Shown in pieces: positions 4,776 through 32,727 of a stretch of DNA of 32,727 nt (the stretch's first letter is position 1; each line of letters begins with the position of its first letter). Origin of the DNA: Ignavibacteria bacterium (GTDB lineage Bacteria > Bacteroidota > Ignavibacteria > Tepidaquicellales > OLB5); the NCBI GenBank assembly GCA_014879675.1, contig JACSRQ010000162.1, forward strand, positions 1 through 32,727, in the 5' to 3' direction. Both the position numbers and the translations under genes were made by a program. The notes under the pieces are model-generated. The model made no database searches. It saw nothing but the letters and a program-made list of their open reading frames with translations, and was not told the origin of the DNA.

Positions 4776-4779
4776 TGTT

Positions 4780-5352: not shown

Positions 5353-5358
5353 AATATT

Positions 5359-6429
5359 TTATCTGAGAATTATGGAATTATCCCTGTTAACAGAAATAGA
5401 GTATTTTTTTCTGAAGAGAACTTCATAGAGATCCCCGATCTCATTGTTTTTGATAGGCCTAATGCTGTAATCATTGGCTTTGTTATTTGTATTTACAGGA
5501 TATATAACAAAATAATTCCCGCTGCTGTTTATTATTAGTTTTAACATTATCCCAAATGGTTTTGCGCCTGTTGATCTGTACCTTCCGGGAGAGTTAAATA
5601 TGAAGTTACCGATATTATAAAATATCCACTTCCCGTTATATAATTCAACTTCCTGGATAGTATGTGCACCATGCCCTATCACCAAGTCAGCGCCGGCATC
5701 AATAAAATTATGCGCATAAGCCTTTTGCAGTTCATTTGCGGGTTTATAATTACTGCCCCAGTGCGGATAAATTATTATAATTGCGCCGGGATTATCTTTG
5801 CGATATAGCTTGATCTGAGAAGAAAGCCGGATGGTATCTAATTTATTTACACCGGGTTTATTCACACCGGCATAAAAATCATAATGTGTATCATACTTTT
5901 GCCTGTATTCAAACCCGCCGAATATTATTAATTTATTTCCTTTAGTATCCAGGATAAGAGGTTTTGAGGCTCTTAATGAATCATCACCTGCGCCAAAACA
6001 ATTTATCTTACCGCTGATTAATGCATTCACAGTTGAGTTATAACCCATTTGGCCATAGTCAAATACATGGTTATTACCCATCGTTACATTGTTAATATTG
6101 TATTTTTTCAGATATTTCACCACTGAGTCGGGGGTGCCCCAGTGCAAATAAGGTTTCATATATGAAACAGGCAAAGTATTTCGGCCGATGTTTATAAGCG
6201 GTGTTTCCAGATTGCAAAATGTGATATCGAAAGTTAAAAGTATATCTTTTACATTTTCAAAGAAATAATCATAACCATATTCTTCAATTATATTTTCCCC
6301 GTGATTGAATTTAGGGTCGTATTGATAATTTTCACCAAAGTGTGTATCACCAAGAAACAGTACACTTAGTGAATCACAGTAAACACAACTGAGATTGAAC
6401 AGGAGCAGTAACATGGCTTTTTTCAACAC
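5359..6429 (-). CDS. CapA-like metallophosphatase (PGA_cap family), secreted
   Basis: About 356 residues of the CapA/PgsA (PGA_cap) branch of calcineurin-like metallophosphatases, related to poly-gamma-glutamate capsule proteins. Motifs in order: FLGDTHFGE, CNLETPL, MGNNHVFDYG, YPHWGSNY, GHGAHTIQE and FYNIGNFIF, which together build the metal centre. The N-terminus is a signal peptide (LKKAMLLLLFNLSC). I prefer the GTG at 6429: it gives a Lys-rich signal start and lies just past the stop of the upstream gene at 6437. A TTG at 6444 would overlap that gene, and an ATG at 6414 is also possible. No other capsule genes are nearby, so the substrate is open. It is probably co-transcribed with the antiporter upstream. 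Confidence 0.85.
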   Translation of the reverse strand: MLKKAMLLLLFNLSCVYCDSLSVLFLGDTHFGENYQYDPKFNHGENIIEEYGYDYFFENVKDILLTFDITFCNLETPLINIGRNTLPVSYMKPYLHWGTPDSVVKYLKKYNINNVTMGNNHVFDYGQMGYNSTVNALISGKINCFGAGDDSLRASKPLILDTKGNKLIIFGGFEYRQKYDTHYDFYAGVNKPGVNKLDTIRLSSQIKLYRKDNPGAIIIIYPHWGSNYKPANELQKAYAHNFIDAGADLVIGHGAHTIQEVELYNGKWIFYNIGNFIFNSPGRYRSTGAKPFGIMLKLIINSSGNYFVIYPVNTNNKANDYSIRPIKNNEIGDLYEVLFRKKYSISVNRDNSIILR

Positions 6430-19964: not shown

Positions 19965-20242
19965 TCTTTCTGCTCCTTTAGAATTGTTTGGAATTATTTA
20001 AAAATTCTTACAAGTTAGCAATATCTGCAAACAGAGTCAACAAAAACCTATTATGTGAATCAGGTAATTTAAATCACTAACATTCCTTAGTTTAGCGGAA
20101 CATGTCTATGCAGCTATCTAACAAAAATTGGCGGTTCGGGGTTTTGTATTACAACATATTATTAAATTATAAAATATTATTTTGGCAGAACCGTCTCAAT
20201 CAAAGCAAGGAAAGATGTTAATAAAGAATCCTGTTTTACTTA

Positions 20243-20854
20243 ATGGAAATAGCTGTACAAAGGGAGCTTCCCGAAGATCTTAAGTTGAAAGAGAAACTGG
20301 AAAAACAAAACTCCCGCTTAAAGGAAGTTATCGAAAAAGAGTCGCCGCGGCTGCTTGGTTTTATAAAACGCAGGGTTGCTGTTGAATCTGATGCCGAAGA
20401 TATTCTGCAGGATGTATTCTACCAGTTCACCAAAACTATGCGCGAAGACCCTATTGAAAAAGCCGCATCATGGCTTTTTAAGGCAGCCTCAAACAAGATC
20501 ATTGACTGGTACAGAAAGATCAAACCCGTCTCGCTTGATAAAATGAACGAACATACCTTCGATGATGAGCTGAACACATCTTACAGGATGGAAGACAAAA
20601 CATTCAAAGATACTCAGTCACAGGATGTATTATTCAACAGGCAGGAGTTCTGGCCTATGCTCGAAGAGCTGCTTAACAACCTTCCCGAAAAACAAAGAGA
20701 AGTTTTCATTATGCACGAGCTTGAAGGGAAAAGCTTCAGGGAAATATCTGAAATAACCGGTACCGGAATTAACACCCTGCTTTCGAGAAAAAGATATGCC
20801 GAGCTTTACCTGAGGGAAGAACTGCAGGAGCTTTATGATGAAATAACTTCCTGA
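20243..20854 (+). CDS. ECF-type RNA polymerase sigma factor
   Basis: A 203-residue sigma-70 family factor with only regions 2 and 4. Region 2 (~30-95) has SDAEDILQDVFYQF and ASWLFKAASNKIIDWYRK. After a longer than usual acidic linker (~96-135), region 4 (~140-195) has LPEKQREVFIMHELEGKSFREISEITGTGINTLLSRK, a complete helix-turn-helix. The charged, Lys/Glu-rich N-terminal 30 residues are unusual and may be a coiled coil. The next two genes follow on the same strand (gaps 30 and 40 bases). The first encodes a small membrane protein in the position where an anti-sigma factor is often found, but it has no recognisable anti-sigma domain. No target promoters are known. Confidence 0.92.
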   Translation: MEIAVQRELPEDLKLKEKLEKQNSRLKEVIEKESPRLLGFIKRRVAVESDAEDILQDVFYQFTKTMREDPIEKAASWLFKAASNKIIDWYRKIKPVSLDKMNEHTFDDELNTSYRMEDKTFKDTQSQDVLFNRQEFWPMLEELLNNLPEKQREVFIMHELEGKSFREISEITGTGINTLLSRKRYAELYLREELQELYDEITS

Positions 20855-20884
20855 ACTATTGTAAAAATATAAATACTGAATAAT

Positions 20885-21280
20885 ATGAAACACAAAAAAT
20901 TTGTAAGAGGCCCGCTGTTCCTTTTGAAAATGGTTCTGATACTTGCGGTTACATCGGTGATAGTGATGTTATTGTGGAATGCACTCATTCCGGCAATCTT
21001 CAGCGGCCCGGTAATAAACTACTGGCAGGCTGCGGGGCTGTTACTGCTTTCGAAGATACTTTTCGGCACAATGGGGCGCGGATGCGGCAAAAGGCATCAT
21101 AATTACCCCGATGAAATGTGGAAACACAAGCTGAAAGAAAAATACGAGGCTATGTCACCGGAAGAAAAAGAGAAATTCCGCACAAAGTGCAGCAGCAGGT
21201 TCAGCTTTACGGATGATGATATCTGCCCCGGCAGCGAAAATGAAAATGCGGGCAATACCGGCAATCAGAAAACCCAATAG
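20885..21280 (+). CDS. Small two-helix membrane protein in the ECF sigma operon
   Basis: A 131-residue protein with two membrane helices (~9-32 and ~44-62) joined by a short loop, in a pattern I have seen in small proteins next to sigma factors: VMLLWNALIPAIFSGPVINYWQAAGLLLLSKILFG. A Gly/Cys/His-rich turn (GRGCGKRHHNY) follows, then a soluble tail with WKHKLKEKYEAMSPEEKEKFRTKC and more Cys (KCSSRF, DICPG). The Cys/His set could bind metal or sense redox. It may hold the sigma factor at the membrane, which is inference from position. No classical anti-sigma (zinc-binding ZAS) motif HxxxCxxC is seen. Confidence 0.72.
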   Translation: MKHKKFVRGPLFLLKMVLILAVTSVIVMLLWNALIPAIFSGPVINYWQAAGLLLLSKILFGTMGRGCGKRHHNYPDEMWKHKLKEKYEAMSPEEKEKFRTKCSSRFSFTDDDICPGSENENAGNTGNQKTQ

Positions 21281-21320
21281 CCGGTTGCTATTCACAAAAA
21301 ACAACAGGGAGAATTTAACA

Positions 21321-21536
21321 ATGCAAGTGTATGTTTTCAGAACAGGAGCGGCTAAAGAAGAAGATGTTAAAAAAGTTGCGCCTCACCTTAACTCCATCAA
21401 AGGCGTTCATAGATGGACCTTTGACCTGGAGGATCCTGAAAACATACTTCGTGTTGAGGCAGCGGGAATTTCCGCCGCCGAAATTGAAAAGATCCTTGCT
21501 CTCGAGAACTGCTTTTGCGAAGAGCTTCCTGACTGA
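21321..21536 (+). CDS. HMA-like small protein without the metal-binding Cys pair
   Basis: A 71-residue protein with a ferredoxin-like βαββαβ outline: MQVYVFRTGAAKEEDVKKVAPHLNSIKGVHRWTFDLEDP...ILRVEAAGISAAEIEKILA. This resembles a heavy-metal-associated (HMA/copper chaperone) fold, but the CxxC loop is missing (TGAAKEED there). The only Cys are near the end (NCFCEEL). The start at ATG 21321 is set by AGGGAG at 21306-21311; the longer frame upstream overlaps the preceding gene. It is third in the sigma operon, 40 bases after the membrane protein. It could be a non-metal sensor derivative of HMA proteins; no function is claimed. Confidence 0.65.
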   Translation: MQVYVFRTGAAKEEDVKKVAPHLNSIKGVHRWTFDLEDPENILRVEAAGISAAEIEKILALENCFCEELPD

Positions 21537-21701
21537 ATTCCTCAACCTAACGCCAAATTAACCCTTTCTTATATTTTTTACGCTCCAATGAAGTTGCATT
21601 AGCTTACATTTATTATTAACTTTAGGTAATCCGTTAAATTGAAGTAAAACATTTCCCGCTCCCGCAAGCCGGAAGCATAACGCATAGAAAGGAGTACCAT
21701 C

Positions 21702-22133
21702 ATGAAATCACTTCGTGATATCTGTACCAATAAAAATATGTTCTATGTAAAGACGGGTATGACCGTTTATGAAGTTGTAAACGAGATGGCGAAAAATAAT
21801 ATTGGAGCTGTCCCCGTTCTTGATGACGGCGGTAAGCTGAAGGGTATCTTCTCCGAGCGTGACCTGATGATACGGTGCGCTGCCAGAAAGATCAATATGG
21901 AGATTACCCCGATTGAAGAAGTTATGACAAGGGGTGTTATCCTGATGGAAGCTCATGATTCATACAATGACTGCATGAAGATAATGCAGCAGGAAGGTAT
22001 CAGGCATATGCCCGTTAGAGATGGTGAAAAGCTCATTGGAGTTGTCTCTATGCGGGACCTCATGCAGGAAGATGCCGAAGAGAAGAAACAGGAAATAGAG
22101 AACCTTAACTCGTACATATACTATTATAAGTAG
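21702..22133 (+). CDS. CBS-domain pair protein
   Basis: A 143-residue soluble protein made of two CBS motifs and nothing else. CBS1: MFYVKTGMTVYEVVNEMAKNNIGAVPVLDDGGKLKGIFSERDLM. CBS2: DSYNDCMKIMQQEGIRHMPVRDGEKLIGVVSMRDLM. CBS pairs bind adenine nucleotides (AMP, ATP, SAM) and act as energy sensors; stand-alone versions have few known partners. The Asp of the two RDLM motifs, which usually contacts ribose, is kept. A Shine-Dalgarno AAAGGAG is 10 bases before the ATG, and a strong terminator follows at 22164. It is monocistronic and 165 bases from the sigma operon. Confidence 0.92.
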   Translation: MKSLRDICTNKNMFYVKTGMTVYEVVNEMAKNNIGAVPVLDDGGKLKGIFSERDLMIRCAARKINMEITPIEEVMTRGVILMEAHDSYNDCMKIMQQEGIRHMPVRDGEKLIGVVSMRDLMQEDAEEKKQEIENLNSYIYYYK

Positions 22134-22163
22134 CGGAATTTTTACTTAGTAAATTTAAGAAAG

Positions 22164-22191
22164 AGCCCCGGTATATTGCCGGGGCTTTTTT
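22164..22191 (+). terminator. Intrinsic terminator of the CBS gene
   Basis: AGCCCCGG (22164-22171), 7-base loop, CCGGGGCT (22179-22186), then a T-run to 22191. It could also stop the convergent minus-strand gene at 22208-22375, but the T-run on that side is weaker. Confidence 0.92.
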
Positions 22192-22207
22192 GCATCCAAA
22201 AGGAACA

Positions 22208-22375
22208 TTAAGCTTTTTTGTACCTTATGAATGCGTATAACACCCCGATCAGTATTCCAACACCTGCTGTACCGATGTTCCAGCCAAGTATTTGGGTCAG
22301 AATAATCAGGGGGACAGCTATCACCAGAACAGTAATTATCGACGAAAAAATTGAAGTTTTTGCTGATGTATTCAT
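22208..22375 (-). CDS. 55-residue two-helix membrane protein
   Basis: On minus, ATG at 22375 to TAA at 22208 encodes 55 residues. The sequence begins MNTSAKTSIFSSIITVLVIA; hydrophobic segments are IITVLVIAVPLIILTQILG and TAGVGILIGVLYAFI, ending RYKKA, so two membrane helices with a basic tail are expected. A good Shine-Dalgarno (AAGGAG) lies about 10 bases before the ATG, inside the 14-base gap after the SBBP-repeat gene stop (22390), so it is probably translated from that gene's message. I recognise no family. It is short enough that automatic calling may have missed it. Confidence 0.65.
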   Translation of the reverse strand: MNTSAKTSIFSSIITVLVIAVPLIILTQILGWNIGTAGVGILIGVLYAFIRYKKA

Positions 22376-22389
22376 TTTTATAATCTCCT

Positions 22390-23988
22390 TTATTTAATTA
22401 AAATCATCTTTTTAGTTTCAGCAAAACTGCCTGAAATTAACCTGCAAAAATAAGTACCGCTGGGCAGGTTCGAAGCATCAAAGGTGTATCCATATGATCC
22501 GCTGCTTAAGTATTCATCAACGAGCGATACAACTTCTTTGGCGGATACATCAAATACAGAAAGTTTTACATTTCCGCCTACCGGCAAATTGAAATTTATG
22601 TTTGTTGAAGGATTGAATGGATTCGGATAGTTCTGTGAAAGCTGATAATCTGAAGGAACTCCGCTGTTAACATTTTGTAGTCCGGTTAACTGGCTGTACT
22701 TTATAGTTGCATAATCGGCGAAGCTTGTGCCTGTTACAAAAACATTACCGGAGTTATCGGGTATAACCTTCAAAGCAACATCACTTTGAGATCCGCTGTA
22801 GTTATAAGCGGTCAGCCATCTGAAGTTACCTGCGGGATCATATGAAAGAGTCAGGTAGTCATCTCCGTTTCCGTAAGCGCTCGTTTTACCTGCAAGAAAC
22901 AAGTTTGATGCTGCGTCACGGGAGATACTATATACATTTTCAATTCCGCCTACATTAAGAGTATTCATCCACTGCTGTACCCCGGAAGAGTTGTATCTTA
23001 CTGCAAAAACATCATTACTGTTTGTTCCCTGGGTGCTGCTGCCTGCTGCGAAAACATTCCCTGATGCATCAGTTGTAATGCAGTTCACTTTATCATCATT
23101 GTTTCCTGGCCCAGTGTACCTCTGGAACCACCTGAATCCTCCGGTAGAATTCAGAGAATATACAAAACAATCATTTCCTGTACCGTATGCATTAGTATAG
23201 CCGCCAATATATGCATTTCCTGCTGCATCCAAACCCAGGCTCAGGCCTATTTCCTCCCCGCCCACATTAAACGGGAAAACCCATTGCTGTACACCTGCGG
23301 AACTATATTTTACGGTCATAAAATCGTAGCCGTTTCCGGGCACTGAAGAATAACCTGTCACTACAACATTACCTGAAGCATCAACTGCAAGATCGATGGG
23401 GTAATCATCGTAGTTGGCATGATTGTATCTTTTTGACCATTGGGTAGCGCCGGCAGAATTAAGCTTAAATACCACAAAATCTTTTTGTGTTCCGCTGCCA
23501 GTGCTTGTTCCGCATACATAAATATTTGAGGAAGCATCAAGTACCATCTTGTATGCTTCATCATCAAGCCCGTCCGGTCCGGTAAATCTGTAATCCCATA
23601 CCAATGAGCCCGATGAATTGTATTTTAAAACCATTATGTCCAGTGCAAGACCGGTTCCGCCATAGCTGGTACCGCAAACATACACATTCCCTGAAGCATC
23701 AACCGCAACATTTACGCCATTATCATTATTTCCGCCACCAATACCGGTGTATCTTGCAGTCCATTGTTCAGCTCCGGCTGAATTGTACTTCACGGTTAGT
23801 ATGTCACTAAAGGTTACAGGTACAGTACTTGATCCTGTAACATACACATTTCCGGAAGCATCGATCGTTATATCCCTTACTTCATCTGCCCCATTTGTCG
23901 GCGGGTTGTAACGGGCAGTCCACTGTGAAGAAACCTGTGAGAAAGTAACTGTACAAAGCAGCATTGAAATTAGTGCTATAATTTTCAT
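22390..23988 (-). CDS. Secreted SBBP-repeat β-propeller with T9SS sorting domain
   Basis: A 532-residue exported protein. Signal peptide at 1-17 (MKIIALISMLLCTVTFS). Residues ~22-440 hold seven or so SBBP (seven-bladed propeller) repeats, each with 'DASGNVYVTGSS' followed by a 'F.V.KYNSAG..QW' strand. The last ~80 residues are a T9SS sorting domain: NYPNPFNPSTNINF ... GTYFCRLISGSFAETKKMILIK. A Shine-Dalgarno GAGGAG lies before the ATG. A 55-residue membrane protein gene follows 14 bases downstream. It is divergent from the helical-repeat gene at 24344, the same arrangement as at 11893/13892. The ligand is unknown; related propellers are surface proteins. Confidence 0.92.
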   Translation of the reverse strand: MKIIALISMLLCTVTFSQVSSQWTARYNPPTNGADEVRDITIDASGNVYVTGSSTVPVTFSDILTVKYNSAGAEQWTARYTGIGGGNNDNGVNVAVDASGNVYVCGTSYGGTGLALDIMVLKYNSSGSLVWDYRFTGPDGLDDEAYKMVLDASSNIYVCGTSTGSGTQKDFVVFKLNSAGATQWSKRYNHANYDDYPIDLAVDASGNVVVTGYSSVPGNGYDFMTVKYSSAGVQQWVFPFNVGGEEIGLSLGLDAAGNAYIGGYTNAYGTGNDCFVYSLNSTGGFRWFQRYTGPGNNDDKVNCITTDASGNVFAAGSSTQGTNSNDVFAVRYNSSGVQQWMNTLNVGGIENVYSISRDAASNLFLAGKTSAYGNGDDYLTLSYDPAGNFRWLTAYNYSGSQSDVALKVIPDNSGNVFVTGTSFADYATIKYSQLTGLQNVNSGVPSDYQLSQNYPNPFNPSTNINFNLPVGGNVKLSVFDVSAKEVVSLVDEYLSSGSYGYTFDASNLPSGTYFCRLISGSFAETKKMILIK

Positions 23989-24065
23989 GTATGACTCCTC
24001 TATTATTTATTTTTGAGATTCTTATCCATCAGGAGAGGCACCCTGTTTTTAACAGAATGCCTTCC

Positions 24066-24176
24066 TTAGTTAGCGCATGGTAAAACAGATTTCACCATTG
24101 CGGGACCCTTATCCGCGGGTTTTACATATACCGCGGTAGCTGATACTCTTTTGATTTGTAGTTTGATTGATTTCAT
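24066..24176 (-). CDS. Possible 36-residue leader peptide
   Basis: On minus, ATG at 24176 to TAA at 24066 encodes 36 residues beginning MKSIKLQIKRVSATAVYV and ending PCAN. It lies upstream of the SBBP/T9SS gene (start 23988) on the same strand, about 77 bases before it. No Shine-Dalgarno sequence is visible. It is of interest only because the 12-codon extension upstream of the other T9SS gene also starts MKSI(N/K)(I/L) (13710, MKSINIKFENNI), with similar DNA around the ATG. It may be chance. Confidence 0.22.
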   Translation of the reverse strand: MKSIKLQIKRVSATAVYVKPADKGPAMVKSVLPCAN

Positions 24177-24287
24177 GGTCAATTCTGTTTAATACGCTAA
24201 CGATGCAAAGATATATTTTGGAGTGCGGCATAACAAATATAAATAATCCCGAAAAAATCATTTTCAGACCTCCATTTTAGCGTAATT

Positions 24288-24319
24288 ATTGCAAAAACAA
24301 GAATAATTTACTATTTTTG
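24288..24319 (+). promoter_or_regulatory. Bacteroidota-type promoter before the helical-repeat gene
   Basis: TATTTTTG (24312-24319) matches the TAnnTTTG -7 box. ATTG (24288-24291) is a three-of-four match to the TTTG -33 box at a 20-base spacing, which is in the normal range. Transcription would start near 24326, giving a leader of about 18 bases before the ATG at 24344. Confidence 0.5.
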
Positions 24320-24343
24320 AAGCATCAATAAAATCGCCGAAAT

Positions 24344-25780
24344 ATGAATAAACTCATTCAGTTAATATGCTCTTTCAGCGAAGCCGAGATTTTGAGATTC
24401 GAAGAATTCGCAGCTTCGCCATTTCACAACAAACGCAGGGACATTAAAATTTTTGCCCAATTCCTGAAACAAAATCACCCTTTGAAAGAAATTGATAGAA
24501 AGAAGCTATATGAACTGGTTTACGGAACGGGAATATACAACGAACAGGTTATGATAAACCTGTTCAGCAGGACACTAAACCTGGTGAAAGAATTTCTTAA
24601 ACAGCTTGGACTTGAGAAAGACCCGGTTTCCGGCACCAACGCAATGGCTTACGAACTTGCCCGAAAGGGTCAATTGAAGCTGGTTGAACAGATGATTGAA
24701 AAAGGCATAAGTGATCTGGATGCTGTAAATTACTCGGTAGAATACCTGATGAAATTTTATGAGTATGCAGAAACCCGGGATGCGCTTGTGACAGGATTCA
24801 GAAATAATAATGCAAGGGTAAAAAGCGCTTTTGTAAAAGGAGAAGCTGCTGTAAACTACAACATTCTCAACCTGCTTAGAATTGCAAACGACTTCGTCGT
24901 TTTCGGTTATTTCAATTCCATTATGGATAACGACAGGCTTTTCAACGGATTTTTCAATTATTTTGATTTTGAAAAGTATCTTGAAAATCTCGAGAAGATC
25001 GGCTCACCATATTACGCACTGACTGCTGTTTTTTATTACGGCCTGTTAAGCAAACAAAACGATCCCGCGGGAATATACAGAGAGAAACTTAAGGATGTAG
25101 TGTTTGAAAATCTTGATACTCTAAGGTACCAGGACCAGGCAACATGCTGGACTATGCTGTTTGCTGCATATGTTTTCAACGGTACTCCGGGCCGCGGGGA
25201 TAATTCCTCACAGATCCACTCAATAAATAAAATGTTCGTTGAAAAAGATATCCTCACTAAGGATGAACTGGGATATGTTATGGAAAACAATTTTCATAAC
25301 ATTGCTTTCCAGGCAATTAATGCAGGGGATTTTGAATGGGCCGAAGAATTTCTAAACAAATACAGGGACAAACTGCCTCCTGATTTAGGCGATAACACTT
25401 ACAATTTATGTATGTCCCGTTGTTTCTTCGAAAAAGGTGATTTTGAGGGCAGCCTTGTTTACCTGAGCAGGCTCAAATACTTTAACCCTATCGGCAGATG
25501 CAATACGTCTATCCTGTTCATTAAGTGTTACTATGAACTTGGCTATTATGAGCAGGCGCTTTATGCCGCTGAAGCATTTAAAGCATACATGTATCAAAAC
25601 AAAGAGCTTACCCAAAAAATTAAGCGTCCATTTGAACACTTTGCAAAATATGCTATCTTGCTTACACGGATAAAAGCATCAGGAGCAAAGCTGGATGAAT
25701 CCGTTTTTATCAAAGCACAGAAGCCTGAAGCTTACAGCTCCAGGGTATGGGTAATGAAAAAGATGGAGGAGTTGAGATAA
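24344..25780 (+). CDS. Second helical-repeat protein, unknown function
   Basis: A 478-residue, mostly α-helical cytosolic protein. The beginning, LIQLICSFSEAEILRFEEFAASPFHNKRRD followed by IFAQFLKQNHP, has the same layout as the protein at 13892 (hydrophobic opening, S-x-x-E-x-x-x-F, then a helix with F..FL) and of proteins in Bacteroidota beginning 'LSxxEhxxFxxFLxSPYFNK'. Later parts read as TPR-like helices (GDFEWAEEFLNKYRDKLPPD; GDFEGSLVYLSRLKYFNP; YYELGYYEQALYAAEAFKAYM). Sequence identity to the 13892 protein is low outside the N-terminus. It is divergent from a T9SS cargo gene. No catalytic motif is seen. Confidence 0.75.
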   Translation: MNKLIQLICSFSEAEILRFEEFAASPFHNKRRDIKIFAQFLKQNHPLKEIDRKKLYELVYGTGIYNEQVMINLFSRTLNLVKEFLKQLGLEKDPVSGTNAMAYELARKGQLKLVEQMIEKGISDLDAVNYSVEYLMKFYEYAETRDALVTGFRNNNARVKSAFVKGEAAVNYNILNLLRIANDFVVFGYFNSIMDNDRLFNGFFNYFDFEKYLENLEKIGSPYYALTAVFYYGLLSKQNDPAGIYREKLKDVVFENLDTLRYQDQATCWTMLFAAYVFNGTPGRGDNSSQIHSINKMFVEKDILTKDELGYVMENNFHNIAFQAINAGDFEWAEEFLNKYRDKLPPDLGDNTYNLCMSRCFFEKGDFEGSLVYLSRLKYFNPIGRCNTSILFIKCYYELGYYEQALYAAEAFKAYMYQNKELTQKIKRPFEHFAKYAILLTRIKASGAKLDESVFIKAQKPEAYSSRVWVMKKMEELR

Positions 25781-25868
25781 CGGCAGTATTCTGCCGAAAT
25801 TACATGCTAATCTTCAGTTATACAGGAACAAGCAGTAGATGGAGTTTGTTGCATTATTATATATTATA

Positions 25869-25916
25869 AGCTAATTTTTATGAAGTTGAATTACACAACT
25901 TATTTAGCTAATTTTT
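25869..25916. promoter_or_regulatory. Nested inverted/direct repeat, possible operator
   Basis: AAGTTG (25883-25888), 7 bases, CAACTT (25896-25901) form a perfect dyad. It is flanked by direct repeats of AGCTAATTTTT at 25869-25879 and 25906-25916. It lies 34 bases before the MoxR-type ATPase start, where a regulator site or a 5' leader stem could be. It is equally likely to be AT-rich chance. Confidence 0.35.
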
Positions 25917-25949
25917 CAATTCAAACATAAAGAAAGAACACAATTTTAG

Positions 25950-27503
25950 ATGGGTCAAATACCAAATCATCCAAAGACCTTAGGTGAACTGAAATCATCA
26001 GGTTATAAAGTACTTGCAGTAAAAGATGAGATACGAAAAAACCTGGTCGAAAAGCTCAGGAAAAAAGAAGAAGTATTCCCGGGTATAATCGGCTACGAAA
26101 AAACCGTTATACCGCAGGTAATTAACGCAATTTTGGCAAGGCATGATATAATTTTCCTGGGCTTGCGCGGACAGGGTAAAACAAAAATGGCAAGAATGCT
26201 TGTTGACCTGCTCGATGAATATACTCCCATTATTAAGGGATCAGAAATAAACGATAACCCGTTTTTCCCGATCTCGAAATTCGCAGTGGATGCTGTAAAC
26301 GAACACGGCGATGACACCGAAATTGAATGGATCGGCAGAGAAAGCCGCTTCGGTGAGAAGCTTGCAACGCCCGATGTAACTATAGCAGATCTGATCGGTG
26401 ATATCGATCCGATCAAGGCTGCAACGCAGCGGCTGCATTATTCACATGAAGGCGCTATTCATTTCGGCATTGTTCCGCGAACTAACCGCGGAATTTTCGC
26501 TATCAACGAGCTGCCTGATCTGCAGCCGAGGATACAAGTAGGACTCCTCAATATCATGCAGGAGCGTGATATTCAGATCCGCGGGTTCAATATCCGCTTT
26601 CCTCTGGATGTATTTATAGTATATACTGCGAATCCCGAAGATTACACTAACAGGGGTAACATCATCACTCCGCTTAAAGACAGGATCGACTCACAGATAC
26701 TTACTCATTACCCTAAGAGCATAGAAGACGGCATTAAGATCACTGAATCTCAAAGCTGGATAAAACGCCATCATGATAAGGATGTGATTATTCCCTATTA
26801 CATGAAGGAAATAATCGAAATGGCAGCCCATGAAGCAAGGCGAAGCGAGTTCGTTGAGCAGAAATCAGGCGTAAGCGCAAGGCTAACTATTTCGGCAATG
26901 GAAAACCTTGTAAGTAATGCCGAAAGAAGATCGATAATAAACGGCGAAACCATTATTTTCCCCAGGATTACGGATCTTGGCGCAGCTTTGCCGGGAATGA
27001 CGGGAAAGATCGAGCTTGTATTCGAAGGCGAACAGGAAGGACCCGTTAAAGTAAGCCGCGCGCTGATCGGGAAAAGTGTAAGAGAGGTCTTCAGGAAGTA
27101 TTTCCCCGACCCGTTACAGAAAAAGCCAAGGAAGCAAGCCGAACAGAAAGATCAGCCCGTTGGTGACCCGTATGCTGAAATAGTTAAGTGGTTCGAAGGC
27201 GGCAATTATATCGAACTTAACGATGATATGAAGTTTGAAGAGTATTTTTCTGCCCTGAAAAGAATTGATGGATTGGAAAAGGCTGTAAAAAAACATGTTA
27301 AAACGATTGAAAACGACTACGAACTTGCATCAATGATGGAGTTTATGCTTGAAGGACTGCATAATAACTCCAAAATTGCAAAAGATGAGATGGATGAAGG
27401 TGTTTCGTATAAAGATATGGTGGGCGCGATGCTGTATAATAAGGCAACCCAGAAAGGTTCCCGCTCGTCCTATGATTATGAAAGCGAAGAATGGAATTTT
27501 TAA
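25950..27503 (+). CDS. MoxR/ChlI-type AAA+ ATPase (magnesium-chelatase subunit I family)
   Basis: A 517-residue AAA+ protein of the helix-2-insert clade. Residues ~40-80 hold the entry motif (VFPGIIGYEKTVIPQVINAIL) and Walker A GLRGQGKT at 71-78. Walker B is GIFAINELPDL (about 181-191), with Asn-Glu in place of the usual Asp-Glu. Sensor 1 is in VYTANPEDYTNRGN and an Arg-finger-like DRIDSQI follows. Residues ~290-380 form the lid; a ~130-residue helical C-terminal part (after a KKPRKQAEQKDQP linker) is less conserved. Such ATPases normally work with a von Willebrand A partner to remodel or metallate a target; no VWA gene is in this window. The substrate is open. A possible operator lies upstream at 25869. 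Confidence 0.85.
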   Translation: MGQIPNHPKTLGELKSSGYKVLAVKDEIRKNLVEKLRKKEEVFPGIIGYEKTVIPQVINAILARHDIIFLGLRGQGKTKMARMLVDLLDEYTPIIKGSEINDNPFFPISKFAVDAVNEHGDDTEIEWIGRESRFGEKLATPDVTIADLIGDIDPIKAATQRLHYSHEGAIHFGIVPRTNRGIFAINELPDLQPRIQVGLLNIMQERDIQIRGFNIRFPLDVFIVYTANPEDYTNRGNIITPLKDRIDSQILTHYPKSIEDGIKITESQSWIKRHHDKDVIIPYYMKEIIEMAAHEARRSEFVEQKSGVSARLTISAMENLVSNAERRSIINGETIIFPRITDLGAALPGMTGKIELVFEGEQEGPVKVSRALIGKSVREVFRKYFPDPLQKKPRKQAEQKDQPVGDPYAEIVKWFEGGNYIELNDDMKFEEYFSALKRIDGLEKAVKKHVKTIENDYELASMMEFMLEGLHNNSKIAKDEMDEGVSYKDMVGAMLYNKATQKGSRSSYDYESEEWNF

Positions 27504-27505
27504 AT

Positions 27506-27536
27506 ATTGCGGATTGCGGATTTTTGATTGCGGATT
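27506..27536. repeat. Three copies of ATTGCGGATT
   Basis: ATTGCGGATT occurs at 27506-27515, 27513-27522 (overlapping) and 27527-27536, directly after the ATPase stop. It is an intergenic tandem motif of a kind common in these genomes. No function is evident. Confidence 0.6.
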
Positions 27537-27652
27537 ACAATAAGTATTTTCTATGACAACCTTCAGGAATCTGGTCATTCATTTTTGATTAATAGTATCT
27601 TAAAAGAAACTTTAGACTTTTGAAGTCTTATACCCGGAAGATTAATATTTTT

Positions 27653-27934
27653 ATGCAGCAAACAGAAGAGATTACATCACCAACAGATATTGATACCACT
27701 ACAGAGGGTTTTACGCTCATTCTGTTCAATGATGCCCATCATGAATTTGAAGAGGTAATAAACCAGGTCATGCTGGCTTCCGGTTGCGGATATGATAAGG
27801 CCGAGGCTATTACCATGGAGGCTCACGAAAAAGGGCGCGCTGCAGTTGTATCCGGAGAGCTGGGTAAATGCCTTTCGGCTCAAAGCGTACTTGAAGAAAT
27901 CGCGCTCCGTACCTCAATTGAAGTAAACGCTTGA
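27653..27934 (+). CDS. clpS: ClpS, ClpAP protease adaptor
   Basis: A 93-residue ClpS that hands N-degron substrates (N-terminal Leu, Phe, Tyr, Trp) to ClpAP. A flexible N-terminal tail (MQQTEEITSPTD) needed to engage ClpA precedes the core TLILFNDAHHEFEEVINQVMLASGCGYDKAEAITMEAHEKGRAAV, with the binding-pocket ND...H motif intact. The start is the ATG at 27653; the frame continues upstream to a TTG that is less likely. aat follows 10 bases downstream on the same strand, so the two genes of one N-degron route are together. ClpA is not in this window. Confidence 0.95.
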   Translation: MQQTEEITSPTDIDTTTEGFTLILFNDAHHEFEEVINQVMLASGCGYDKAEAITMEAHEKGRAAVVSGELGKCLSAQSVLEEIALRTSIEVNA

Positions 27935-27944
27935 ACATTAGCCT

Positions 27945-28556
27945 TTGCGCTCAGCAAATTACAAATACAGCGCTTTAAACTGGCAGCAGGTATTGAATGG
28001 TTATGCCATGGGTATCTTTCCTATGGGAGAGGAAGACGGCTCTATTGCATGGTTTGAAGCTTCGCCGCGCGCCATAATGCCAATAAGTTCACCGGAAGCG
28101 GATATAAATGTATCCCGCTCTCTTAAACAGGTAATAAAAAAGAATATCTTTGAAATAAGGATCGATACAGCATTTAATCAGGTGCTGAATTTTTGTGCGG
28201 AACGTGAAAGTACATGGATAAACGACATGATCAAATCAGCATATACAGAACTGCATGAAAAAGGGTACGCACATTCGGTAGAAGCATGGCATGATGGTGA
28301 ACTTGCAGGAGGATTGTACGGTGTAGCCTATAGGGGCGCGTTTTTCGGAGAGTCAATGTTCAGGAAAGTTAACAATGCATCTAAGGTATGTGTGGTTGAA
28401 TTATACCGGATATTGCAGCAGAACAATTACATCCTGTTCGATATACAGATGATGACATCGCACTTTGAACAATTCGGCGCAGTTGAGATTTCGAAGCGAA
28501 GGTACCTGGATCTGCTTGAAAAAGCAATGGAAGAAAGATGCGGATTCCAATACTGA
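27945..28556 (+). CDS. aat: Leucyl/phenylalanyl-tRNA-protein transferase
   Basis: A 203-residue L/F-transferase that adds Leu or Phe from aminoacyl-tRNA to proteins with N-terminal Lys or Arg, making them ClpS substrates. Conserved blocks: NGYAMGIFPMGEEDGSIAWFEASPRAIMP, then HSVEAWHDGELAGGLYGVAYRGAFFGESMF and LFDIQMMTSHFEQFGAVEISKRRYLDLL. The start is a TTG at 27945, because an in-frame TAG lies two codons upstream and the first ATG (28011) is inside the conserved motif. The family-typical length is kept. It sits 10 bases after clpS and almost certainly shares its message. Confidence 0.95.
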   Translation: MRSANYKYSALNWQQVLNGYAMGIFPMGEEDGSIAWFEASPRAIMPISSPEADINVSRSLKQVIKKNIFEIRIDTAFNQVLNFCAERESTWINDMIKSAYTELHEKGYAHSVEAWHDGELAGGLYGVAYRGAFFGESMFRKVNNASKVCVVELYRILQQNNYILFDIQMMTSHFEQFGAVEISKRRYLDLLEKAMEERCGFQY

Positions 28557-28588
28557 TCAGTCAGAAATATAGTGCATATACTCTTAAG

Positions 28589-29038
28589 CTATATGCTGTT
28601 CTTATCTTCAATCTTCTTAACCTTTTCCAGCCTTCTTAAATATCTTTCTTCAGGTTTCAGCTTTGCATTGGCAAACGAATTTATAATTTCCACTGCAAGT
28701 GACTCGCCAACAATACCGCTGCCCAAACACAGAACATTCATATCGTCATCTTCAACACCCTGGTGTGCCGAAAAAACATCATGGCATATTCCGGCGCGTA
28801 TTCCCCTGAATTTATTTGCAGCTACACAAGCGCCAACTCCGCTTCCGCAGATAAGAATTCCTTTACTTGCATTCTTTTTATATATCTCATTGATAACTGC
28901 TTCCGCAATATCGGGATAGTCAACCGAAACATCGGAATCTGTACCTACATCAATAACATTAAAATCAGCGGAAAGTACTTTTTTCAGATTTTCTTTCAGC
29001 CTGAAACCGCGGTGATCTGCACCAATTATTATGTTTTT
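28589..29038 (-). CDS. rpiB: Ribose-5-phosphate isomerase B (RpiB/LacAB), 5' end lost in fusion
   Basis: About 150 residues of RpiB, which interconverts ribose-5-P and ribulose-5-P in the non-oxidative pentose phosphate route. It begins at KNIIIGADHRGFRLKENL and carries the active-site CGSGVGACVAANKFRGIRAGICHD block and DMNVLCLGSGIVGE. Only the extreme N-terminus (normally MK.IAIGAD) is missing: the frame runs straight on from the aminotransferase fragment described at 29021. The His often found in the 'HND' motif is replaced (VEDDDMNVL), as in some family members. It faces aat tail-to-tail. The gene belongs with the left-hand genome by codon style. As printed it would be made only as part of a 472-residue chimera. 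Confidence 0.85.
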   Translation of the reverse strand, partial: KNIIIGADHRGFRLKENLKKVLSADFNVIDVGTDSDVSVDYPDIAEAVINEIYKKNASKGILICGSGVGACVAANKFRGIRAGICHDVFSAHQGVEDDDMNVLCLGSGIVGESLAVEIINSFANAKLKPEERYLRRLEKVKKIEDKNSI

Positions 29039-30007
29039 AGCCTTTAATTTATCAATAAAAATAGACGATTCGATAACCGTATCAGCAACGGCCACTGTAC
29101 GAGAGCGATGTGGCTCGTGTGCTACTGAAGGTTTTAGTAAAACACTTTTCTCTAAGAAATCGTAAATCATTTTGGCCTTTGTATCGGTTTCTTTTCGGAT
29201 AGTTTCGATACCCGTTTTGTTCATGTCTTCGGCCACTTTTCCGAGTAAATAGATACCTAACACATTGGGTGTGGCTGGGGTCTGAAACTGCTTCGATTGT
29301 TTCCAAAGGGTTGGTAAATCGTGATGAGCTCCGATATGGAAATTATCTTTTTCGCTCTTTGAAAGCATAAGCGATTTTTCGAGGCAGGCTTCGTTGGCAA
29401 TCCAAACGCCTAAGCCAGCAGGTAAGCCAAAGGCTTTTTGTACAGAAAAGAAGGCTGTATCAACCACGCTATAATCTAATTCCGGAATTGGAGCCGACGA
29501 AACCATATCAACGGCTATGAGTTTTTTGCTATGGCTACGTTTTAGGCGATGAATATCTGGCTCACGCATTTGTACACCTGTGCTGGTTTCGTTTTGTGTG
29601 GTACAAATAAGCTCCACATACTCCGAAATTTCGGGTTCGTTGTACGCAAAACCTTCGCCAAGTGGCTTCTCTAACTTGTGAGCATACTTTTTTAGGCTTA
29701 TGGCATATTCATAAAATTTTTGTGAAAACGAGCCATTTACTAAATGATACGACTCATGTTCTACTAAATTGAGTAAGATACGCTCCCAGATTTCAGAAGC
29801 CGAACCTGTAAAAAGAATGGCCGCTTCGGCAGGGATATTCAGTAGCTGACGAAGTTGCTCGTCGGTGTGTTGATGTATTTTTTTGTATTGGCCGCTTCGG
29901 TGCGATATTGAGCCAATTTGTTCATCAACAGCTTGTTGTAAAAACTCTTCAAATTTTGGATATAACTCAGCAGGGCCTGCTGTGAAATAGGTTTGTTTGC
30001 GTGCCAT
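29021..30007 (-). pseudogene. Class V PLP-dependent aminotransferase, C-terminus missing, fused in frame to RpiB
   Basis: About 325 residues of a PLP-dependent class V aminotransferase (alanine/serine-glyoxylate or SerC-like branch). N-terminal FTAGPAELYP, then VDMVSSAPIPELDY and the PLP-lysine motif SVQKAFGLPAG (Lys191) are all present. The chain is cut at KLKAKNIIIG, where such enzymes normally continue with a GSGYG-type segment and ~35-60 more residues. There it turns in frame into RpiB (GADHRGF). Codon choice here (TTT-, GGC-rich; TTAG-type leaders) resembles the genes further right, not those to the left. The best reading is a broken gene at an artificial or recombinational join. Its start ATG at 30007 has no obvious Shine-Dalgarno sequence. 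Confidence 0.8.
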
Positions 30008-30384
30008 TTTCTTTGGAGAATATTTGCTTGGTTTGTGCCTCCAAAATTACAAACTTAATTGCTGAGATTATTATTTTTAGAAAAATTGTTTGATATATCT
30101 AAGCCAAATTATTCGTAATGATATAACATATTTCTGCTCTCTTTCGGTTTTTTCACAACTTCTCACTCAAAGGTATTCACTCACTTACCAACTTACTAAG
30201 GGTGTACGAAACTTTGCAGGTAATGTGCGACCTCTCCGAAGTTGGGGAGTTTCATAGGGGACAGACACATTTTACTACTACAAATATTAAACCTCTCTGA
30301 GGTCAATCTGTCTATACTTTTTTCAAATCTGCAATTTTTCGTACCCCCTTTCTAACCTTCTAACTTACTAATAAATAAACAACC
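30008..30384. other. Gene-free stretch holding a MITE-like element
   Basis: No gene is seen in these 377 bases. The leftmost ~190 bases are AT-rich upstream sequence of the aminotransferase. The 30200-30348 part is the putative MITE described separately. The last ~35 bases have AACTTACTAA-type sequence also seen just left of the element. Confidence 0.6.
30200..30348. mobile_element. Putative 149-bp MITE with terminal inverted repeats
   Basis: The left end (30200-30221, GGGTGTACGAAACTTTGCAGGT) and the reverse complement of the right end (30327-30348) agree at 18 of 22 positions, with GTACGAAA and TTGCAG shared. No coding potential lies inside. Internal dyads include ACCTC/GAGGT and GACAGA/TCTGTC. 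AACTTACTAA occurs directly left of the element and again about 20 bases right of it, but no exact target duplication abuts the ends. It resembles a non-autonomous derivative of an insertion sequence; the parent is not in this window. Confidence 0.5.
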
Positions 30385-30939
30385 CTACCGTACAATATTG
30401 AGCCTTACGCCTCCACTAAGCTGCGGATGCGAAAGAAACGGACGTGGAATGAGTTCAACGTAACCACCGCCATCCAGAAAAACAGCGAGGTCGTTGTTAG
30501 GCAGTTTGTATTCGAGGCCGGCTGCTACGGCAGGGCCTACCGAAATTTGGCGAATGGCATTGGATGTTCTGTCAGACTGATACAGCCTTCGAGAGTTTAG
30601 CTGGCCACCAAACCCATACGTTACATGAAGAGCCTCTCGTCTGAAAAGTGCTTTGTGCCAATTATAAAGCCCCTGGAACTGAAATCCTGCACCATCATAA
30701 ACTAATTTTTTATCACCCGAGCTTCGGTCTTTACCGTAATACTTCTGCCGCCCCCAAAAGAATCCATACGTGCCTACATTTATATCAAAGGCTTTTTCGC
30801 CGTCGGCAAAATACTTGCGGATATTAGCCCCCAATGGCTCGCCTGCACGTACGCCTATTGCCCAATTGGAATAATATTCTTGAGCAAAACCACTGGCAGC
30901 AGTACTCAGAAGTAGGGTAATCAGAATAGCTTTTTTCAT
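30385..30939 (-). CDS. Outer-membrane-type secreted protein, unknown function
   Basis: A 184-residue protein with a signal peptide (MKKAILITLLLSTAASGFAQ, cleaved after FAQ). The rest alternates aromatic and glycine residues (SNWAIGVRAGEPLGANIRKYF; HVTYGFGGQLNSRRLYQ; ISVGPAVAAGLEYKLPNNDLAVFLDGGGYVEL), typical of small outer-membrane barrels or surface β-proteins of Bacteroidota. The final strand SGGVRLNIVR is short. The opening IGVRAGEPLGANIRKY is common in such proteins. It has no clear family name. It lies in the right-hand piece, 61 bases from the DUF3299-like gene on the same strand. Confidence 0.72.
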   Translation of the reverse strand: MKKAILITLLLSTAASGFAQEYYSNWAIGVRAGEPLGANIRKYFADGEKAFDINVGTYGFFWGRQKYYGKDRSSGDKKLVYDGAGFQFQGLYNWHKALFRREALHVTYGFGGQLNSRRLYQSDRTSNAIRQISVGPAVAAGLEYKLPNNDLAVFLDGGGYVELIPRPFLSHPQLSGGVRLNIVR

Positions 30940-31000
30940 CTTAAATCTTTGTGTAAACTTTGCGGTTAATTACAAACTCAAATTTATACTTTTTTGATTG

Positions 31001-31447
31001 TTACAAAACAGCTTCGGCATTTTCTAAAATATAATTTAGCTCATTAATATCATCTGCATTCAGACGCAGCGTGCCTTTAATCGTAACACGGTCGTCGGTG
31101 TTGTAGCGTTTAGCTACTTTTTTGAATTTGATGGAGGCAACAGATTCGGGACCCGACTGCCCGCAAAAGAAGCAAGCCGCAAATGGGTTGGCCGATAGTA
31201 CATAATAGTTGGCATCAATATCCACCGGAATCATGTATCCTGTAAGCAATACATCTTTGCCTTTTAAAGCAGAAATTTTAGGGCCAAAACTTGGGTACAA
31301 AATAAACATCCCTTGTGCGGCATCCCATTTTTTCTTGAAAGAAACATCTCGAAGGGTTTCCCAAGTAATTTTTTGTGGAGCATCGGCCACTTTAAACGAC
31401 GATGAAACAATTGCAATAAAAATTAAAATGACAATTCGATTAAGCAT
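31001..31447 (-). CDS. DUF3299-like periplasmic protein
   Basis: A 148-residue exported protein. N-terminal hydrophobic segment (MLNRIVILIFIAIVSSSFKVADA), then ITWETLRDVSFKKKW, LKGKDVLLTGYMIPVD and the hallmark ANPFAACFFCGQSGPES with a CxxC pair, and RVTIKGTLRLN. These match DUF3299 proteins, which often sit beside a FtsX/MacB-type transporter and, in Vibrio cholerae, belong to the Zur-controlled zinc-uptake set zrgABCDE (ZrgD-type). Here the permease gene is 151 bases upstream on the same strand. The CxxC could bind metal. The zinc link is inference; the family call is fairly secure. A low-complexity tract separates it from the permease gene. Confidence 0.72.
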   Translation of the reverse strand: MLNRIVILIFIAIVSSSFKVADAPQKITWETLRDVSFKKKWDAAQGMFILYPSFGPKISALKGKDVLLTGYMIPVDIDANYYVLSANPFAACFFCGQSGPESVASIKFKKVAKRYNTDDRVTIKGTLRLNADDINELNYILENAEAVL

Positions 31448-31453
31448 TTGTTG

Positions 31454-31590
31454 ATAGTTGGTTTATTGGGTAATTGGTTTATTGGGGAATTGGGGAATTG
31501 GTTATTGGTAAATTGGTTTATTCTTTCCTTCATTCCTTCATTCCTTCATTCATTCATTCTTTCATTCACTCACTCACTCCTTCACTCATT
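31454..31590. repeat. Low-complexity intergenic tract
   Basis: Repeats of TTTATTGG/GAATTGG-type units (about 31459-31521) are followed by CATTCCTT/CATTCATT/CACTCACT units (about 31530-31585). It lies between the DUF3299-like and permease genes. Such tracts are common between genes in some Bacteroidota; nothing similar occurs left of 29,030. Confidence 0.7.
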
Positions 31591-31597
31591 AATTCCT

Positions 31598-32727
31598 TTA
31601 CTCCTCTGCCAATGTTTTTGAGATATTTATCCGATAAATATTGATAGAGGGTAAAGCGGCGGCTAATAGGCTTATTCCGATGGCTGCAAGCAAAAGCAGT
31701 AGTTCTTCTTTTTGTAAAATTACTTGCGAAAGCGGCAAATGAAATTTGGCATTTAGTTGATTTGAAATCAGAACAGCCCCCAAACGACTAAAAAGTAGCC
31801 CCAGCACATAGCCAATTGTACCTAAGAAAAGCCCTTCGATAAGTAAAAGAACAAATAGCTGTAAACGACTTGCTCCCATCGAAAGCATAAGTGCCAGCTC
31901 GTATTTACGCTCTTTTAACGAATTATAAAGCGAAACAAATACACTAATGCCCGAAATTATCATGATGGCTATGGCCAAAGCCCGAAGTGTACCAATACCT
32001 ACACCAAGCAGCTCGAACAAGCGATTCACTTCGATTGAAGGTAGAGCGGCCTGCATGGCTGTATTTTCGTTGATTGTTCGGGGGAGGGTCATTAACCCCA
32101 AAGGCGACCGAAACTGTACCAACGCACTCGTAATTTGTTTTTTGTTTTCTTCGTGTGTTTCCTCTTCATGGGCTTCGTGTGAGCCATGTACAGCCCATAC
32201 ACTGCTCAACGACGTAAGCAGAAGGTTGTCAAGAACAGAGTTAGAATAATTCAGTATTCCCACTACTTTATAGGTAAGCTCATTGTGCGACTCGCCGGCT
32301 TCGTCGAGGCCATGAGCACTGGCAAACGTATCGCCTATTTTTAAGCCTAACTGCTGTGCGGCAATTGCTCCAACCGCCACATCGCCATCGTTAATGAATA
32401 GGGTGCCATTTTGTAGGCTAGCTTCAAAATGCTCGATATACAGTTTGTTTGTCCCGACAATTCGGTAGCCTCTGTAATTATCGCCCATCGAAATCGGAAT
32501 TACCTTTTTAATAAGCGGATTACTGGCAAGTGTTTGTACTTCATCCAGCAGAATATTGCCCGTAGGGTTATCAATATGATAAATACTTGATAAAATAAGC
32601 TGCAAAGGGCTACCTTTTGCCCCCACTACCATATCAATGCCTTTTATGTTTTTTGAAAATTTTTCTTGAAACTGATTATTTATCAGAAAAAGCAGCGAAA
32701 TAAGGGCAATGCCCAGCGACATAAGCA
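31598..32727 (-). CDS. FtsX/MacB-type ABC permease, 5' end beyond the window
   Basis: 374 or more residues of a permease of the LolC/MacB/FtsX group. It enters within what should be the first membrane helix (SLGIALISLLFLINNQF), followed by a large extracytoplasmic domain (FSKNIKGIDMVVGAKGSPLQLILSS ... VAVGAIAAQQLGLKIGDTF) and three C-terminal membrane helices (LRALAIAIMIISGISVFVSL; LFVLLLIEGLFLGTIGYVLG; LLLAAIGISLLAAALPSI), the FtsX core. The outer loop has a His/Glu cluster (HGSHEAHEEETHEENKK), which fits metal handling. The N-terminus is cut by the window edge. It may work with the DUF3299-like protein; its ATPase is not in view. Confidence 0.85.
   Translation of the reverse strand, partial: LMSLGIALISLLFLINNQFQEKFSKNIKGIDMVVGAKGSPLQLILSSIYHIDNPTGNILLDEVQTLASNPLIKKVIPISMGDNYRGYRIVGTNKLYIEHFEASLQNGTLFINDGDVAVGAIAAQQLGLKIGDTFASAHGLDEAGESHNELTYKVVGILNYSNSVLDNLLLTSLSSVWAVHGSHEAHEEETHEENKKQITSALVQFRSPLGLMTLPRTINENTAMQAALPSIEVNRLFELLGVGIGTLRALAIAIMIISGISVFVSLYNSLKERKYELALMLSMGASRLQLFVLLLIEGLFLGTIGYVLGLLFSRLGAVLISNQLNAKFHLPLSQVILQKEELLLLLAAIGISLLAAALPSINIYRINISKTLAEE

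What the first reader, a model, noticed from the sequence alone, without database searches (positions are those of the whole stretch)
29015..29060. Join between two genomes inside one reading frame (aminotransferase to RpiB)
An open frame of 472 codons reads as the first ~325 residues of a class V aminotransferase, then at KNIIIG switches to RpiB lacking only its start. Both families have a β-strand ending in 'IIIG' there, so a short identical stretch (AAAAACATAATAATTGGT region, 29021-29038) could have bridged them. Intergenic style and codon choice also change at this point: the palindromic repeats of the left part stop, and a MITE and low-complexity tracts begin. It is probably a metagenome assembly chimera, otherwise a microhomology recombination. 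A natural bifunctional enzyme is unlikely because both domains are cut at the joint.
Basis: partly seen in the sequence, partly recalled or inferred. Interest (0 to 1): 0.7.

Follow-up and report, generated by a model that had tools for sequence, protein, structure and literature searches.

The report
Assembly join of two bacterial genomes
The apparent two-enzyme gene is almost certainly an assembly error that glued the end of one bacterium's contig to a few thousand bases from a different bacterium; it is not a natural fused enzyme.

Summary
The reading frame is real: 28589-30007(-), 472 codons. Residues 1 to about 330 are a class V (SerC-like) aminotransferase cut before its last 33-35 residues. 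From K-N-I-I-I-G on it is an RpiB lacking only its first one to three residues. The halves come from different bacteria. RpiB and the genes to its left (AAA ATPase, clpS, aat) keep the gene order of the contig's own genus. The aminotransferase and three genes to its right (a 3.7-kb tail to the contig end) have their nearest relatives in Cytophagales; in the contig's own family the aminotransferase and permease find only weak matches (30% identity or less). A composition change point falls at 29,057 (28,909-29,099). In six same-genus loci a divergent histidine kinase gene lies just upstream of rpiB, followed in five by a regulator and a 2-oxoglutarate-dehydrogenase-like gene. In this genome those genes sit on another contig (C145), which begins in or near the kinase start, so rpiB's native continuation is very probably there. 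The join lies inside at most 22 bases (29017-29038) that both genes may have shared, as expected of a misjoin at a short k-mer. Raw reads were not available.

The parts
25950..27503 (+). AAA ATPase (Mg-chelatase-like), host genome
   Evidence: 83-88% identical in the six same-genus loci L058-L063, in the same order with clpS, aat and rpiB; weak Mg_chelatase/AAA Pfam matches
27620..27934 (+). clpS, host genome
   Evidence: Pfam ClpS E 3.6e-12; syntenic in genus
27945..28556 (+). aat (leucyl/phenylalanyl-tRNA--protein transferase), host genome
   Evidence: TIGR00667 above cut-off; syntenic in genus
28589..29032 (-). rpiB of the host genome, lacking only its first one to three residues with the start codon
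   Evidence: PF02502 profile 1-138 of 138; 63-80% identical to rpiB of 13 of 14 other same-family genomes, single copy in G000
29017..29038 (-). joint: longest stretch (22 nt) that both source genes may have shared; ATAATTGGTGCAG (13 nt of it) is also present in the closest aminotransferase relative L039
29039..30007 (-). foreign class V aminotransferase (SerC-like), C-terminal 33-35 residues missing
   Evidence: 72-80% identical to Emticicia, Jiulongibacter and Spirosomataceae MAG_35, 73% over its length to the top-scoring of 222 genomes of one Cytophagales family; Aminotran_5; no match above 29% in the other 14 same-family genomes
30200..30350 (.). MITE-like element with imperfect ~20-bp terminal inverted repeats, in the foreign tail
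   Evidence: sequence; the only other match in G000 is a 21-nt stretch
30385..30939 (-). 184-aa protein without a Pfam match, foreign tail
   Evidence: 43-54% identical beside the next two genes in at least 13 of 20 Cytophagales loci
31001..31447 (-). 148-aa protein without a Pfam match, foreign tail
   Evidence: 54-71% identical beside the permease gene in 19 of 20 Cytophagales loci; no other match in G000
31598..32727 (-). FtsX/MacB-type permease, cut by the contig end, foreign tail
   Evidence: Pfam FtsX and MacB_PCD; up to 66% identical in the Cytophagales family of G204; only partial matches of 22-30% in the 14 other genomes of the host family

Best explanation
The window is the whole of contig C23 of a 255-contig assembly. 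Its first ~29,017 bases belong to the binned species. Its last ~3.7 kb (29039-32727) come from a Cytophagales bacterium. Most likely the assembler joined them at a short identical k-mer (at most 22 nt, AAAAACATAATAATTGGTGCAG on the minus strand), where an aminotransferase strand (KN.I[IV]GA-GYG) and the start of rpiB (M..IIIGA-DHRG) read alike. The frame stayed open by chance, so a 472-codon hybrid appears. Shown: two origins, place of the change, truncation of both genes, and on another contig the genes that flank rpiB upstream in its genus. Inferred: that C145 is the native continuation, that the data are a metagenome, and that the join was made by software at a shared k-mer rather than in a cell or during library preparation.
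For: RpiB half matches 13 of 14 other same-family genomes at 63-80% in separate frames of 149-159 aa, with AAA-clpS-aat-rpiB gene order in the six larger genus loci. The aminotransferase half has no match above 29% there but 72-80% in Emticicia, Jiulongibacter and Spirosomataceae MAG_35. The permease is up to 66% identical in G204's family (189 of 222 genomes have a match) against partial matches of 22-30% in 14 of 14 other host-family genomes. The permease-148aa-184aa order is conserved in that family. Tetranucleotide distance of the tail is 0.300 against 0.175 +/- 0.019 (max 0.219) for 51 left windows, 0 of 51 reaching it. Change point 29,057 (28,909-29,099) with two Markov orders. In 6 of 6 genus loci fetched a divergent kinase starts 188-257 bp upstream of rpiB, in 5 of 6 followed by the 488/489-aa regulator and the 2-oxoglutarate-dehydrogenase-like gene (in the sixth, L061, the fetched stretch ends inside the kinase). 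In G000 these three genes lie in that order on C145, which begins in or at the start of the kinase.
Against: No reads, coverage or assembly graph were available. C145 and C23 share no overlap (longest common piece a scattered 17-nt stretch with one mismatch), and the intergenic element conserved upstream of rpiB in the genus was not found in G000 with up to 3 mismatches, so the true link is inferred from gene order rather than bridged. The aminotransferase is not next to the permease cluster in the four relatives checked, so the foreign tail as a whole has no syntenic counterpart. The tail's tetranucleotide correlation with eight Cytophagales loci is 0.17-0.58; for two of them (L022, L084) it is no higher than with host sequences (0.14-0.26). 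The Markov models were trained on loci that include homologues of the genes tested. The exact shared stretch in the true source strains is unknown: 2 of 13 rpiB loci share 15 nt with the joint and 1 of 12 aminotransferase loci shares 13 nt there; the others share only 9-11 nt, mostly elsewhere.
Confidence: 0.95

Rival explanations
1. Real horizontal transfer or illegitimate (microhomology) recombination put Cytophagales DNA in front of rpiB and created a transcribed aminotransferase-RpiB fusion.
For: The frame is open through the joint, and a short homology suits microhomology-mediated joining as well as k-mer collapse.
Against: The genes that flank rpiB upstream in the genus are retained, and C145 begins in or near the kinase start with no foreign DNA in front. 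None of the seven proteins around the joint scanned with Pfam is a mobile-element protein. The tail runs to the contig end. Both genes are cut. No other same-family genome shows it, nor any row listed.
Confidence: 0.03
2. A natural bifunctional enzyme: an old fusion of aminotransferase and RpiB.
For: A single open frame.
Against: The aminotransferase lacks its conserved C-terminal 33-35 residues. No match spans both halves in the rows listed for 14 other same-family genomes and 222 Cytophagales genomes (list cut). In the aminotransferase-only search of 395 phylum genomes (list cut) the matches of 45% identity or more lie in frames of 359-419 aa. Halves track different lineages.
Confidence: 0.005
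3. Chimera made in the laboratory (ligation or PCR template switching at the short homology during library preparation), then assembled.
For: Gives the same sequence outcome; no call separates it from an assembler misjoin.
Against: Single chimeric molecules rarely reach assembly depth (general knowledge, not tested).
Confidence: 0.015

Closest known systems
Interspecies chimeric contigs in metagenome assembly (described in passages seen of PMC8201837 and PMC8171044)
   Same: Fragments of two organisms in one contig, with a candidate stretch of common sequence at the join; small foreign part at a contig end
   Different: The join falls within a reading frame and happens to keep it open, so it looks like a gene fusion
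Ribose-5-phosphate isomerase B (RpiB, PF02502)
   Same: All 138 profile positions present, ordinary genus member
   Different: First one to three residues with the start codon replaced by the foreign sequence
SerC-like class V aminotransferase (PF00266) of Cytophagales
   Same: Residues 1 to about 330 at 72-80% identity to the closest relatives
   Different: C-terminal 33-35 residues missing

Membership tests
Interspecies assembly chimera | Two sides have nearest relatives in different lineages | tested here: met
Interspecies assembly chimera | Composition breaks at the joint | tested here: met
   0 of 51 left windows as far off as the tail; change point 29,057
Interspecies assembly chimera | Native continuation of the host side exists elsewhere in the same assembly | tested here: met
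   by gene order only: kinase, regulator and 2-oxoglutarate-dehydrogenase-like genes on C145, which starts in or at the kinase start; no sequence overlap bridges C145 and C23
Interspecies assembly chimera | Short sequence common to both sources at the joint | tested here: inconclusive
   at most 22 nt; 13 nt seen in L039 and 15 nt (ATTGGTGCAGATCAC) in rpiB loci L005 and L009; the true source strains were not available
Interspecies assembly chimera | No read support across the joint, or unequal coverage on its two sides | not testable with these tools
   no reads held
Natural aminotransferase-RpiB fusion enzyme | Same fusion in other genomes | tested here: not met
   rpiB in a separate frame of 149-159 aa in 13 of 13 other same-family genomes where it was found; no spanning match in the rows listed
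Natural aminotransferase-RpiB fusion enzyme | Both domains complete | tested here: not met
   aminotransferase lacks its C-terminal 33-35 residues; RpiB profile complete
RpiB (PF02502) | Full-length profile match above the curated cut-off | tested here: met
   1-138 of 138, 156.8 bits against a cut-off of 24.7

The most novel reading that the evidence does not exclude
A genuine recent microhomology recombination between a Cytophagales bacterium and an unrelated lineage of the same phylum that placed a truncated aminotransferase in frame before rpiB and is carried by part of the population.
Probability: 0.03. Interest if true: 0.35.

Novelty: not a real feature. Interest (0 to 1): 0.06.

Why it matters
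It matters for data quality. An in-frame chimera can enter protein databases as a false bifunctional enzyme and as false horizontal transfer. This one lies in a genome rated 0.26% contaminated, so that rating did not reveal it. Bases 29039-32727 of the contig should be trimmed and assigned to another organism.

Tried and rejected
Considered a natural fusion, horizontal transfer and a library chimera (see rivals). Considered a join at the 11-nt TTTTATTGATA that the window shares with the upstream region of several rpiB loci. Rejected: the residues after it (DKLKAKNIIIG) still align with aminotransferase relatives and no start codon remains in frame between it and RpiB, so the join lies downstream of the lost rpiB start. 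Considered a second join inside the tail at the 21-nt exact match to contig C37. Rejected: in C37 the match lies inside a gene that reads as a short-chain dehydrogenase (PF00106, residues 7-187) on both sides of it, and in the window it lies between the two terminal repeats of one element. Third-position GC was uninformative. The search for the rpiB upstream element in G000 found nothing. The search for the missing aminotransferase end in G000 found only C23 itself and a 22% paralogue.

Full report
What is there. The window is the whole of contig C23 (32,727 bp) of a 255-contig, 3.79-Mb genome, 94.66% complete and 0.26% contaminated. One reading frame on the minus strand, 28589-30007, has 472 codons. 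Pfam finds Aminotran_5 at residues 126-330 (profile 135-337 of 371) and a full-length LacAB_rpiB at 326-463. NCBIfam matches phosphoserine transaminase models in the first part, well below their cut-offs, and RpiB models in the second, PRK05571.1 and rpiB_lacA_lacB above their cut-offs.

Where the halves come from. With the whole hybrid as query, 13 of 14 other genomes of the same family give an RpiB at 63-80% identity starting at query residue 318-325, in separate frames of 149-159 aa. One genome (G009, 64% complete) gave only a weak aminotransferase match. None of the 14 has an aminotransferase match above 29% identity. G000 itself has one rpiB, this one. The aminotransferase part alone finds 23 loci in named genomes, mostly Cytophagales: Emticicia sp. 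CRIBPO 73%, Jiulongibacter Ww143 74%, Spirosomataceae MAG_35 80% over residues 97-322, Runella 66-68%, one record named Flavobacterium sp. SUN052 at 64%, down to 45% in the last. NCBI puts Emticicia and Jiulongibacter in Leadbetterellaceae and Runella in Spirosomataceae, all Cytophagales. Among 395 genomes drawn from the phylum the best are G204, G263 and G383 at 64-68%, one family (f45), of the same phylum but not the same class as G000. G204's contig C10 has the length of a named Runella aurantiaca contig, which is why I used G204 as the handle for that family. There 222 of 222 genomes match the hybrid; in the rows listed, none spans RpiB: the alignments to the aminotransferase half end between query residues 332 and 359 (the list is cut).

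The rest of the tail. The permease at 31598-32725 matches 189 of 222 genomes of f45, best 66%, but only partially and at 22-30% identity in the 14 other genomes of the host family. The 148-aa and 184-aa genes stand beside it in the same order in 19 of 20 and at least 13 of 20 of the loci fetched (output cut at 60 lines). The 148-aa gene has no other match in G000. The aminotransferase is not within ~4.5 kb of this cluster in the four relatives checked (L084-L087); in those genomes it lies on another contig or about 125 kb or more away. That adjacency in the tail is therefore particular to the source strain, or a second join that I did not test further.

The left side. AAA ATPase, clpS, aat and rpiB keep their order in the six larger genus loci. 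In all six (L058-L063) a divergent kinase frame of 1426-1693 aa (L061's is cut by the end of its stretch) starts 188-257 bp upstream of rpiB; in 5 of 6 it is followed by a 488/489-aa regulator and a 2-oxoglutarate-dehydrogenase-like gene. In G000 the regulator (71% identical) is on contig C145 at 4509-5978. C145 opens two bases before the first codon of the kinase frame and carries regulator and dehydrogenase-like gene in the same order. Pfam confirms them: PAS, GAF, HisKA_2 and HATPase_c domains; Response_reg with HisKA_3; and E1_dh with 2-oxoacid_dh. Relatives' kinases have about 118-158 further N-terminal residues (from the alignments). The gap to rpiB is thus roughly 0.2 kb if this kinase is short, or 0.5-0.7 kb if its start is missing (my estimate). 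The first bases of C145 are already kinase frame, and it has no overlap with C23. This genome therefore very probably has the normal genus order, and the C23 tail is not its continuation.

Composition. The tail's tetranucleotide L1 distance to the left part is 0.300, against 0.175 +/- 0.019 (maximum 0.219) for 51 overlapping left windows of equal length. A two-model Markov change point falls at 29,057 (28,909-29,099 within 3 log units) for orders 3 and 4. Every 1-kb block from 20,001 to 29,000 favours the host model and every block after 29,001 the other. Caveat: the training loci include homologues of tail genes and host genes. Tetranucleotide correlations of the tail with eight Cytophagales loci vary from 0.17 to 0.58, and for L022 and L084 are no higher than with host sequences (0.14-0.26). 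Third-position GC shows no clear step.

The joint. The closest aminotransferases read ...LK.K[ND]LI[IV]G[AS]GYG..., with 33-35 residues from GYG to the end (counted in L022, L023 and L039). The 11 same-genus rpiB loci read M[EDK][NK][IV]I[IL]GADHRG. The window reads AAAAACATAATAATTGGTGCAG, then ATCAC. The closest aminotransferase, L039, shares ATAATTGGTGCAG (13 nt) and then diverges (GGTACGG). Two of 13 rpiB loci (L005, L009) share ATTGGTGCAGATCAC (15 nt); the others share 9-11 nt, mostly at another place. The shared stretch in the real source strains is unknown but at most 22 nt (29017-29038). That allows k = 21, a common smallest k of metagenome assemblers (recalled, not from a call). By my arithmetic two unrelated genomes of about 4 and 6 Mb share on the order of ten 21-mers by chance, so such nodes are expected. 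The 20-mer inside the joint occurs once in G000, allowing 3 mismatches.

Literature. From passages seen, GUNC (PMC8201837) defines misassembly as fragments from several sources assembled into chimeric contigs and calls misassemblies relatively rare, mis-binning being the larger source of error. MetaVelvet-DL (PMC8171044), also from passages, describes graph nodes made of a stretch of nucleotides common to two species. On its low-complexity test it gives chimeric-contig length ratios of 0.516 (metaSPAdes), 0.279 (Megahit) and, as the lowest, 0.194.

Verdict. It is an assembly chimera with an accidentally open frame. Reads were not available, so a rare real recombination keeps about 3%.

Noticed in passing
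30200-30350: MITE-like element of ~150 bp with imperfect terminal inverted repeats (GGGTGTACGAAACTTTGCAG / GGGGGTACGAAAAATTGCAG), flanked by a direct repeat ending CTTACTAA (30180-30199 and 30352-30371); no other copy in G000.
   Followed up: partly
30222-30242 and locus L095 1501-1521 (G000 contig C37:17026-17046): A 21-nt exact match (E 9.4e-4) between the foreign tail and a short-chain-dehydrogenase gene of the host genome; no join visible at either place.
   Followed up: partly
L003-L009, L011-L013, just upstream of rpiB: Conserved intergenic element (ctacaaactaac..ctttattttattgata, with variants) upstream of rpiB in 10 of 13 rpiB loci, perhaps a promoter or regulatory site; not found in G000 with up to 3 mismatches.
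   Followed up: partly
30008-30384: In the four Cytophagales relatives checked the aminotransferase is not next to the permease cluster, so this junction in the tail may be strain-specific or a second join.
   Followed up: partly
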